The notes beneath the pieces were generated by a model that saw only the letters and a list, made by a program, of their open reading frames with translations, was not told the DNA's origin and ran no database searches. The translations under genes were made by a program, and so were the position numbers. A stretch of 64,000 nucleotides of DNA from Alkalibacterium thalassium (lineage in GTDB: Bacteria > Bacillota > Bacilli > Lactobacillales > Carnobacteriaceae_A). The DNA lies in the NCBI RefSeq assembly GCF_900101165.1, contig NZ_FNFK01000004.1:1-64000 (forward strand), read 5' to 3'. Positions within the stretch are counted from its first letter, which is position 1; the number at the start of each line of letters is the position of its first letter. This document shows positions 15,233-48,080 of the stretch, in pieces.

Positions 15233-15374
15233 ACAGGTATAAAAAAATAAGAAGAGACGCCATTCTTTGGAATGGCGCTCATTATTGCATTCGGGGTAGT
15301 TGTTCGGATTCCGTTTAGGGCTTCTTTTATTCCTGGATGGGAAGCGAGCGACGATTCATTTTGATGACGAATGC

Positions 15375-15511
15375 CTCATATCTCACTTTTATGAGGCATT
15401 CGCCCGATCGATTGAGAGCTCAACGTCTCATAACCTACTTTTATGAGGCATTCGTCCGATCGATTGAGCACTCAATGTCTCATAACCTACTTTTATGAGG
15501 CATTCGTCTAT
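15375..15511. repeat. Tandem repeat array C, 52-bp period
   Basis: Two full units (starting 15375 and 15427) and one partial unit (15479) of a 52-bp repeat beginning CTCATAACCTACTTTTATGA. The unit holds CTCA and TGAG flanking 13 T-rich bases, then GGCATTCG and CGATCGATTGAG. It lies between the broken reductase and uxaC, whose 3' ends face each other. The rest of the 450-base gap holds a hairpin with arms GCCATTC/GAATGGC near 15262 and no gene. Confidence 0.9.
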
Positions 15512-15582
15512 ATGGACTAGAGCTGTTCGTGACCCTTTACGGATAAATAAATCTTCATAGGCGGTAATTCCCATATATATAC

Positions 15583-20179: not shown

Positions 20180-20741
20180 TCTTGTCGGGATGGAGCTTCT
20201 TAGAACCAGCTCGATGGTTCTTTCCTTCTTGAGTTTGTCGTAAGATCTGTCTTGGAACCCACTCGGCTGTTGTTTTCTCCCGAGTTGGTCGCAAGTTGCG
20301 GCTTACAGCCCACTCACCGATTCATTGCTCCTGAGTTGGTCGCAAGATACATCTTAGAGCCCACTCACCGACTCATTTCTCCTGAGTTGGTCGCATGATG
20401 CGTCTTAGAGCCCACTCACCGGCTCTTTTCTCCTGAGTTGGTCGCAAGATGCGTCTTAGACCCCACTCACCAGCTTATTTCTCCTGAGTTGGTCGCAAGA
20501 TACATCTTAGAGCCCACTCACCAGCTTATTTCTCCTGAGTTGGTCGCAAGATACATCTTAGAGCCCACTCACCGGCTCTTTTCTCCTGAGTTGGTCGCAA
20601 GATACATCTTAGAGCCCACTCACCGACTCATTTCTCCTGAGTTGGTCGCATGATACATCTTAGAGCCCACTCATCGGCTCTTTTCTCCTGAGTTGGTCGC
20701 AAGATGCGGCTTTGGACCCACTCGTGCTGATTCGGCCTATT
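20180..20741. repeat. Tandem repeat array A, 51-bp period, about eleven units
   Basis: Units start at 20231, 20282, 20333, 20384, 20435, 20486, 20537, 20588, 20639 and 20690 (the last 52 bp), with a degenerate unit at 20180. Each begins GAGTTGGTCGCAAGATACAT and ends CACTCACCG...TTTCTCCT. Central units differ at only a few positions; end units are more diverged. It fills the space between the glnPQ promoter and the terminator near 20800. No other gene is seen at 20000-20780. Confidence 0.97.
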
Positions 20742-20781
20742 GAGTTAGTCTTTCTTCAGTCCTACCCCTAGCTCTGAAAGC

Positions 20782-28874: not shown

Positions 28875-28884
28875 TAATCATACA

Positions 28885-28932
28885 AGAAGCCCCATCCTGT
28901 GAGTTGATTCTCAGGATGGGGCTTCTTTTTTG
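28885..28932 (+). terminator. Strong terminator after the GH4 gene
   Basis: AAGAAGCCCCATCCTG and CAGGATGGGGCTTCTT form a 16-bp perfect stem, followed by a run of T. Confidence 0.95.
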
Positions 28933-28942
28933 GTTTATCTCT

Positions 28943-29360
28943 TTAGGTCTATGAGCTATCCTATTTGTCCCTGTACTAAATTTATTTGCGACTAAGTTCC
29001 TATGCTATCTTGATTGCACCTGCACTCAAACTCTTTTCCCCTCCGAGTTCCGGCGCTATTCATATTGCACCTCTACTCAAACTGTTTTCCCTACTGAGTT
29101 CCGGCGCTATCTTGATTGCCCCTCTACTCAAACTGTTTTTCCATCTGAGTTCCTAAGCTATCTTGATTGCACCTGCACTCAAACTCTTTTTCCTTCCGAG
29201 TTCAGGCGCTATTCCGATAGCACATGTACTCAAACAGATTTCTCTTTTGAGTTCCTAAGCTATCTTGATTGCCCCTGTACTCAGTCTGTTTTTCTATCTG
29301 AGTACAGGCGCTATTCAGATTGCACCTGCACTCAAACAGGCTTCCCCTACGAGTGCCGCT
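28943..29360. repeat. Tandem repeat array B, 51-bp period, eight units
   Basis: Units start at 28943 (degenerate), 28994, 29045, 29096, 29147, 29198, 29249 and 29300, with a partial one at 29351. Consensus begins GAGTTCCGGCGCTAT and runs through GATTGCACCTGCACTCAAAC to TGTTTTTCC. The 5' 12 bases and the ACTCA with T-tract are best conserved; inner bases alternate between two forms (CGGCGC and CTAAGC). It lies between two converging transcription units, each with its own terminator. Confidence 0.96.
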
Positions 29361-38039: not shown

Positions 38040-38230
38040 ACATCGATGCTGGAACATGTATTGGGACCAGTTCGAGAGACTTTTAGATACGAGTTTGATG
38101 TGGGCAGCAACTCGGAACCAGCTCGGTGGTTCGTTACTGCTTGAGTTGATCGCAAGATCCATCTTAGAACCCACTCAGAAGAAATCATATCTCGAGTCGA
38201 TCCCGCTGAGCTCGACAGATTCCCCCAAGC
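38040..38230. repeat. Short tandem array A', same family as array A
   Basis: Three to four diverged units with starts at about 38040, 38091, 38143 and 38194. The unit at 38143 (GAGTTGATCGCAAGATCCAT, then CTTAGAACCCACTCAG) is clearly related to array A at 20 kb; the others keep GAGT and the period. The rest of the 460-base gap holds only the promoter and the amylase terminators. Confidence 0.85.
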
Positions 38231-43862: not shown

Positions 43863-45167
43863 TTATTGTCCCATCATTGAAATGTTGGCTTCAATATTTG
43901 CAACAGCTTCGTCCAGTACTTCCTGTACATCGTACCCTTGCTGTACGAACTGCAGCGCGTCTCCCATTGGCTCCCAAACCTGAGACATTTCAGGAATATT
44001 TGGCATTGGGTGAGCGTTCTGAGTCTGTGCGAAGATTGGTGCCATGAATTCATCGTCGATTTCTACAGCTGTGTGAGCAGGCAGTTCACCGGCAACTTCA
44101 AAGTAAGTAGTTGAGCTTTCTTCGTTGGTGATGAATAGAGCCAGTTCAGTTGCCCAGTACTCATGGTCTGTGTAGTAGTTGACTAACCAACCTTTGTTTC
44201 CTGAGAAGGAGTTCAATGGCTCTCCGTCTTGAGTCGGCAGCTCTACGACTTGCAGGTTTTCACCGATTGCATCACGGTAGTCAGGAATTGCCCATGGGCC
44301 GTTGACGACCATACCAAGCTGTCCATCCATGAACAAGCTGTCCGCTACTTCAAGGTCAGTTCCTGGAGGCATAAGCCCTTCGTCGAACCATGACTGAATC
44401 ATTTCTACAGCTGAGACTGCTTCAGGTGTGTTTAGACCGATATCGGTTGGATCATAGACGCCGTCTTCATCTTGACCGAAGATGTATCCTCCGTCAGCTG
44501 TGATGAACGGATATGTGAAGTACAGGTCTCCTGCATTCATCATGAAGCCGTGCTGGCCGTCTCCAGTCAGATCACGCGCAATGTCCATCAGTTCATCCAT
44601 TGTTTCAGGTGCTTCAGGTACTAGCTCATTGTTGACGAATAGAGCATATGTTTCAACGACTGCTGGGATTCCGAACTGGATTCCCTCGAAGCTGAATGAC
44701 TGAACCGCTTCTTCGTTGTACTCTCCAAGGCGTTCAAGCTGATCATCTGTCAGATCAAGCTCAGCTGCCAGACCCTGCAGGTAAATATCTCCCATACGGT
44801 CATGCGGCTGGAAGAAAAGATCCGGTCCTTGTCCGGCAGGTCCATCCAAGCTCATGCCTTCAAGCTGCTCAAGCATTTCGTAAGGTGTGATCTGTACATC
44901 GATACCGTACTCTTCAGTAAAGCGCGCTGTAATTTCTTCATAAGCATCCAGCTGCTGTTCTTCATTATTAACCCACATGTGAAGAGATTCAGGCTTTTCA
45001 GGTACATCTTCGTTTGTAGCTTCTTCAGTCGTGTCAGGATCGGTGCCCGTGTCTCCCGTGTCTCCCGTATCTCCCGCATCTCCCGCGTCACCATCTCCAC
45101 ATGCAGCTAATAGACCAGCAGTTGAAAGCAGTAACATTCCTTTGTATAACAATTTAGAATCGATCAT
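43863..45167 (-). CDS. malE: Maltodextrin-binding lipoprotein
   Basis: 434 residues. Lipoprotein signal with lipobox LLAAC, followed by a low-complexity Asp/Gly/Thr tract (repeats of DAG and DTG), then a type I extracellular sugar-binding fold (LHMWVNNEEQQLDAYEEI; GPDLFFQPHDRMGD; LGMVVNGPWAIPDYR). It captures maltodextrins for MalFG. The linker repeats could vary in length by slippage. Preceded by a promoter with two palindromes. Confidence 0.92.
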   Translation of the reverse strand: MIDSKLLYKGMLLLSTAGLLAACGDGDAGDAGDTGDTGDTGTDPDTTEEATNEDVPEKPESLHMWVNNEEQQLDAYEEITARFTEEYGIDVQITPYEMLEQLEGMSLDGPAGQGPDLFFQPHDRMGDIYLQGLAAELDLTDDQLERLGEYNEEAVQSFSFEGIQFGIPAVVETYALFVNNELVPEAPETMDELMDIARDLTGDGQHGFMMNAGDLYFTYPFITADGGYIFGQDEDGVYDPTDIGLNTPEAVSAVEMIQSWFDEGLMPPGTDLEVADSLFMDGQLGMVVNGPWAIPDYRDAIGENLQVVELPTQDGEPLNSFSGNKGWLVNYYTDHEYWATELALFITNEESSTTYFEVAGELPAHTAVEIDDEFMAPIFAQTQNAHPMPNIPEMSQVWEPMGDALQFVQQGYDVQEVLDEAVANIEANISMMGQ

Positions 45168-48027: not shown

Positions 48028-48080
48028 ACTCAGACTGATTTTTCGCCCGAGTACCGGGGTATGCAGGTACCCCTCACTAA
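48028..48080. repeat. Solitary 51-bp-repeat-like unit (D)
   Basis: ACTCA (48028-48032), 16 bases including GATTTTTCG, then GAGT (48049-48052), followed by ACCGGGG and CCCCTCACT. The spacing between ACTCA and GAGT is the same as in arrays A and B although the rest is unrelated. Confidence 0.45.

What the first reader, a model, noticed from the sequence alone, without database searches (positions are those of the whole stretch)
28994..29355. Conserved CTCA-(13-15 T-rich nt)-(T/C)GAG junction across unrelated arrays
In arrays A and B the sequence between ACTCA and the next GAGT is always 16 bases and T-rich (for example AACTGTTTTTCCATCT and CCGACTCATTTCTCCT). The solitary unit at 48028 has the same 16-base spacing. 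Array C has CTCA, 13 bases with CTTTTA, then TGAG. So a conserved hairpin-capable half is joined to a locus-specific half, as in a mobile or recombining unit with a fixed end and variable cargo.
Basis: seen in the sequence. Interest (0 to 1): 0.65.

Follow-up and report, generated by a model that had tools for sequence, protein, structure and literature searches.

The report
GAGT-tagged tandem palindrome arrays in Alkalibacterium
Between its genes, this salt-loving lactic acid bacterium carries tandem arrays of a 34-base inverted-repeat unit spaced every 51-52 bases, whose two arms are conserved while everything between them drifts, which points to an unidentified protein that recognises, and perhaps moves, these repeats.

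Summary
ACTC-N17-GAGT occurs 18 times in the window against 1.1 expected. The repeating unit is YGAGT-N26-ACTCR (34 bp from GAGT to ACTC) plus a 17-18 bp spacer, period 51/52.

Two 14-bp inverted arms (about YGAGTnnGnnnTWWA) are constrained; a 6-bp core and the spacer drift. This holds within arrays (p<1e-10), between loci of one genome, and between orthologous arrays.

Arrays occur in all 12 Alkalibacterium genomes held, Atopococcus, Pisciglobus, a Carnobacterium jeotgali group and one Marinilactibacillus; other sampled Bacilli show chance-level hits. They lie between genes, favour convergent pairs, avoid divergent ones, change copy number by whole units between sister species, and sometimes share whole units between loci.

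Single units fold no better than shuffles. No Y1/RAYT transposase, dedicated tyrosine recombinase, Xer/dif change, Rfam family or recurrent neighbour gene accounts for them.

Best reading: a new REP/BIME-like class of extragenic palindrome, GAGT-tagged, recognised by an unidentified protein. Array C is a separate hairpin repeat; the 'solitary unit' at 48028 is chance-compatible, while a genuine single unit lies at 38143-38197.

The parts
28994..29355 (.). Array B: 51-bp period. First unit (28994-29027) has AAGT for GAGT; intact palindromes GAGT-N26-ACTC at 29045-29078, 29096-29129, 29147-29180, 29198-29231, 29249-29282, 29300-29333; a partly decayed unit lies before 28994
   Evidence: same site carries a shorter array in A. 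pelagium
29024..29354 (.). The seven ACTC-N17-GAGT junctions of array B (the finding): the spacers between palindromes plus their anchors
   Evidence: spacers are not constrained
20231..20745 (.). Array A: ten palindromes, arms GAGTTGGTCGCAAGA / GAGTGGGYTCTAAGA (family A), period 51, decayed edge units on both sides
38143..38197 (.). Single family-A unit: palindrome 38143-38176 plus junction to 38197, with a decayed neighbour
48028..48052 (.). Lone ACTC-N17-GAGT junction; no partner arms at 26 bp; compatible with chance (about 1 expected per window)
15370..15525 (.). Array C: three 52-bp units with an 11-bp hairpin AATGCCTCATA/TATGAGGCATT; a different repeat, not part of this class
   Evidence: mostly missing in A. 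pelagium

Best explanation
The arrays are a GAGT-tagged, REP/BIME-like class of extragenic repeat. The element is a 34-bp inverted pair of 14-bp arms (YGAGTnnGnnnTWWA - 6-bp core - inverted arm). A trans-acting, sequence-specific protein, not yet identified, recognises the arms; core and spacer are not read. SHOWN: the geometry; the constraint on arms against core and spacer; genome-specific arm families; whole-unit copy-number change in place; sharing of whole units between some loci; placement between genes with divergent pairs avoided. INFERRED: that a protein reads the arms; that units spread by copying (transposase-like or recombinational) and then expand by unequal crossing-over or slippage between the 51/52-bp repeats; that the constraint comes from that protein's need for its half-sites; that the 51/52-bp period (about five helical turns) keeps successive sites on one face of the DNA.
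For: Fixed geometry over unrelated sequences: inner 26 in 468 of 489 units, spacer 17/18, period 51/52; gap 26 seen 524 times against a median of 7. Arms slower than core and spacer within 82 arrays (0.89/0.84 vs 0.65/0.68, p<1e-10), between loci of one genome and between orthologous arrays (arms 0.83-0.88, core about 0.4, spacer 0.24-0.44). Genome-specific arms: nearest neighbour in same genome 96/118 vs 20.5 expected. Whole units shared between loci; one arm family at 11 loci here and about 13 in A. pelagium, with decayed singles. About 9 vs 2 units at one orthologous site with the same edges; no array at sites A and B in more distant Alkalibacterium. Convergent-biased placement (OR 4.2, p=3e-6), as described for REPs. 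Patchy but genus-wide distribution.
Against: No recognising protein found: no recurrent neighbour gene and no correlation with Y1 transposases. No clean insertion with an empty site was seen, so mobility is not proven; shared units could come from ectopic recombination. Several arm families coexist in one genome, which a single protein would have to tolerate. Anchor conservation is partly a product of the search patterns; CAGT...GCTC variants exist in A. pelagium.
Confidence: 0.58

Rival explanations
1. Purely architectural binding-site arrays: a nucleoid- or topology-related protein binds the phased arms between genes (as gyrase is reported to bind BIMEs); the repeats are not mobile and arrays grow only by tandem duplication in place.
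For: Helically phased 51/52-bp period, convergent-pair bias, arms constrained and core/spacer free; in A. kapii different loci rarely share core or spacer (1% of pairs at or above 0.7).
Against: Pisciglobus and C. jeotgali loci share whole units and decayed single copies are scattered, which needs copying between loci. Arm sequences differ between species, unlike sites of a conserved housekeeping protein.
Confidence: 0.22
2. RNA element: the palindrome acts as a transcribed hairpin array (terminator, mRNA stabiliser or small RNA precursor).
For: Inner positions 11-14 pair above expectation; mean fold z -1.4 against shuffles that keep only the anchors; location downstream of genes.
Against: Folding is equally weak on both strands; individual window units fold no better than dinucleotide shuffles; arms conserve sequence, including consistent mismatches, rather than complementarity; no Rfam match at any array.
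Confidence: 0.07
3. Tyrosine-recombinase (Xer/dif- or lox-like) sites: inverted arms around a short core are strand-exchange sites.
For: 14-6-14 bp arm-core-arm layout, 34 bp in all, with free core; left and right arms differ consistently in A. kapii.
Against: A. kapii, with one of the highest array counts, has only two tyrosine recombinases, which score as the XerC/XerD pair does in all genomes searched. dif is identical in array-bearing and array-free genomes, so Xer specificity did not change. Cores differ inside one array, which would block exchange.
Confidence: 0.03
4. Neutral minisatellites: tandem duplication by slippage, with no function and no recognition.
For: Copy number varies, edges decay, two- and three-unit higher-order periods occur.
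Against: Same geometry and YGAGT ends in unrelated sequences, loci and genera; arms evolve slower than core and spacer in the same arrays.
Confidence: 0.05

Closest known systems
REP / BIME / REPIN elements (GTAG- and CGTC-tagged; PMC3733652, PMC3116915)
   Same: Short (20-40 bp) extragenic palindromes with a conserved tetranucleotide tag, several sequence families per genome, species-specific bodies, convergent/unidirectional placement, ordered tandem arrays, decayed singles.
   Different: Tag is GAGT at both outer ends; weak folding; rigid 51/52-bp phased period; arrays predominate over singles; found in Lactobacillales; no Y1/RAYT transposase in six array-bearing genomes.
Tyrosine-recombinase sites (dif, loxP-type)
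   Same: About 34 bp, two inverted arms of 13-14 bp around a short core.
   Different: No cognate recombinase beyond XerC/XerD; dif unchanged; cores differ between neighbouring units; long direct arrays.
CRISPR arrays
   Same: Regular alternation of a partly palindromic segment and a spacer.
   Different: Spacers in one array are related to each other (mean identity 0.68), palindromes vary too, spacer only 17-18 bp, many small arrays per genome.

Membership tests
REP/BIME elements | 20-40 bp palindromic, extragenic, multi-copy | tested here: met
   34-bp inverted units; 70 exact sites here (35 per strand-symmetric count aside), 209/193 pattern hits in Pisciglobus; arrays intergenic
REP/BIME elements | GTAG or CGTC tag next to a hairpin | tested here: not met
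   Tag is GAGT at both outer ends; single units fold no better than shuffles
REP/BIME elements (RAYT-dependent REPIN/REP) | Y1 (RAYT) transposase in the genome | tested here: not met
   PF01797 absent from array-bearing G001, G004, G008, G011, G021, G027
REP/BIME elements | Placement between convergent and unidirectional genes | tested here: met
   Convergent 29/70 vs 36/250, divergent 5/70 vs 72/250; REP pattern in PMC3733652
Tyrosine-recombinase site | Inverted arms around a 6-8 bp core | tested here: met
   Arms 1-14 and 21-34 conserved, 15-20 free
Tyrosine-recombinase site | Cognate recombinase present where sites are | tested here: not met
   A. kapii has only two PF00589 proteins; dif constant
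CRISPR array | Near-identical repeats with unrelated spacers | tested here: not met
   Palindromes vary, spacers in an array are related
CRISPR array | cas genes nearby | not tested
   No directed search; flanking genes of the arrays do not recur
Structured RNA family (Rfam) | Match to an Rfam model | tested here: not met
   No match in the window; none at array positions in 14 array loci

The most novel reading that the evidence does not exclude
The arrays belong to an undescribed system: a DNA-binding or DNA-moving protein of Carnobacteriaceae-type bacteria, with fast-changing specificity, spreads and maintains helically phased site arrays between genes without a Y1 transposase or a dedicated tyrosine recombinase.
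Probability: 0.35. Interest if true: 0.8.

Novelty: new variant of a known kind. Interest (0 to 1): 0.58.

Why it matters
REP-type repeats are described mainly from Proteobacteria and are tied to Y1 transposases. Here is a well-defined class in Lactobacillales with another tag, a rigid phased period and no such enzyme. Its patchy presence (1 of 5 Marinilactibacillus, all Alkalibacterium) gives natural with/without pairs for finding the responsible gene, and the split between constrained arms and free core and spacer makes the recognition question directly testable.

Tried and rejected
RAYT/Y1 mobilisation: no correlation with arrays. Dedicated tyrosine recombinase or XerCD: rejected. A linked gene: flanking proteins cluster at most six-fold and look like ordinary orthologues; flanks of the five divergent arrays look like housekeeping genes. 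Phage origin: 3 hits in the viral contigs, taken as chance level. RNA families: none. Array C as a relative: rejected. Hits in a Lachnospiraceae MAG (RGIG2814) and in RUG14274 are operator-like repeats just upstream of a gene. The simple terminator scan did not report the obvious hairpin after the GH4 gene at 28884-28931 (seen as I4), so it was not used. Literature searches found no description of these repeats.

Full report
OBSERVATION. The pattern is real. ACTC-N17-GAGT occurs 18 times in the window; dinucleotide shuffles give 1.13 on average and never more than 4. Arrays A (20231-20745) and B (28994-29355) are 51-bp tandem arrays. In the 2.36-Mb genome the pattern ACTC-N16..18-GAGT-N24..30-ACTC gives 59/61 hits against 4/1 for the reversed pattern, and YGAGT-N26-ACTCR gives 70 against 4. 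The lone junction at 48028 is at chance level; a genuine single unit sits at 38143-38197.

ORGANISM. The window lies in an Alkalibacterium close to A. pelagium.

ANATOMY. Among 489 distinct units the inner length is 26 in 468, the spacer 18 (362) or 17 (107), the period 52 (359) or 51 (108). M. piezotolerans often uses inner 27 with spacer 17, keeping 52 (read). The consensus arm is Y-GAGT-n-n-G-n-n-n-T-W-W-A; positions 11-13 pair across the dyad in 71-75% against 39-47% expected, centre positions do not, and the spacer does not pair beyond the anchor. At about 10.4 bp per turn the period is five turns (inference).

WHAT IS CONSTRAINED. Three comparisons agree. Between loci of one genome, arms are conserved while the 6-bp core and the spacer sit near chance; in A. 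kapii some arm positions reach 1.0 while core and spacer are about 0.3. Between orthologous arrays of A. gilvum and A. kapii, arms are 0.83-0.88, core about 0.4, spacer 0.24-0.44. Within 82 arrays, arms are 0.89 (inner) and 0.84 (outer), core 0.65, spacer 0.68 (all p<1e-10). Arm families are genome-specific: the nearest neighbour is in the same genome for 96 of 118 arrays, 20.5 expected. At one site flanked by the same genes in A. kapii (L118) and Alkalibacterium sp. 20 (L071), arms agree at only 0.56-0.60, and each array carries the arm type of its own genome.

DYNAMICS. The more distant G003 has no array at sites A and B (intergenic about 98 and 125 bp), while A. pelagium has arrays there with different copy number. 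At one site near a tRNA gene A. pelagium has about nine units and this genome about two, with the same edges. One arm family counts about 24 units at 11 loci here and about 70 units at about 13 loci in A. pelagium, including decayed singles. Some loci share whole units: in Pisciglobus the best unit pairs agree at 86-95% of core and spacer positions. This points to copying between loci as well as tandem expansion. Two M. piezotolerans loci have flanks up to 98.7% and 93% identical to Alkalibacterium and look horizontally acquired.

PLACEMENT AND DISTRIBUTION. Arrays prefer convergent gene pairs (29 of 70 against 36 of 250; OR 4.2, p=3e-6) and avoid divergent ones (5 of 70 against 72 of 250; p=7e-5) (ORFs were called by a simple script). 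In 396 Lactobacillales genomes arrays occur only in Alkalibacterium (12/12, weak in G006), Atopococcus, 1 of 5 Marinilactibacillus, Pisciglobus and a Carnobacterium group with C. jeotgali (6/6); other sampled Bacilli show 0-2 hits. Lederbergia citri has one similar 51-bp array, and Lachnospiraceae UBA1267 has GAGTAA-type arrays of period about 53; whether these are related is open.

MECHANISM. Sequence-conserved arms, a free core, weak folding that is equal on both strands and helical phasing point to recognition of double-stranded DNA by a protein. Dispersal, decay, array growth and placement match REP/BIME elements as described in PMC3733652 and PMC3116915. But the tag differs, the hairpin is weak, and the Y1 transposase is absent from six array-bearing genomes, so this is not filed as a member of that family. 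Tyrosine recombinases fail as well: A. kapii has only two, and dif is the same in array-bearing and array-free genomes. The recognising protein is unknown; no gene recurs beside arrays.

LIMITS. Units were collected by exact anchors, which inflates anchor conservation; A. pelagium shows CAGT...GCTC variants. Some loci carry masked runs of N. Protein recognition and mobility are inferences, not demonstrations.

Noticed in passing
window 15370-15525: Array C: three 52-bp units with a strong 11-bp hairpin, largely missing at the same site in A. pelagium; a separate repeat family.
   Followed up: partly
window 45046-45089: Nine-base tandem repeat CCCGTGTCT, about 5 copies, inside the ORF 43863-45167.
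   Followed up: no
L136, L152 (Lachnospiraceae UBA1267): Many arrays with TTGAGTAA...TTACTCAA ends, inner 26-27 and period about 53; 28/29 pattern hits against 0/0 control. Possibly convergent, possibly related.
   Followed up: partly
L105 7440-7800 (Lederbergia citri): One 51-bp array GAGT-N26-ACTC outside Lactobacillales.
   Followed up: partly
L097, L107 (Marinilactibacillus piezotolerans): Two array loci with carbohydrate genes nearly identical to Alkalibacterium (up to 98.7% protein identity), apparently horizontal transfer of array and genes together.
   Followed up: partly
L254, L255, L071, L075, L118, L149, L154, L165: Genes similar to one another (a conserved N-terminus with L..L.KG..GE; NERD-like by recollection, not tested) sit next to arrays in several genera, each with its own arm family.
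   Followed up: partly
L266 690-860 (G000 contig C122): A derived tandem repeat of about 50 bp containing family-A half units (GACCAACTCGATGACACGATCACAACTCAGTTGGCTGCTCGC).
   Followed up: no
window 28940-29214 vs L193 15339-16621: A. pelagium (and G011, G006) carry an alcohol-dehydrogenase-like gene beside array B; it is missing in this genome and in G003.
   Followed up: no
L070 6073-6816 (Pisciglobus halotolerans): Group II intron RNA about 2 kb from an array.
   Followed up: no
L123, L128: Tandem AAACTCAC...GTGAGTTT repeats just upstream of a gene in two rumen MAGs, operator- or promoter-like.
   Followed up: no
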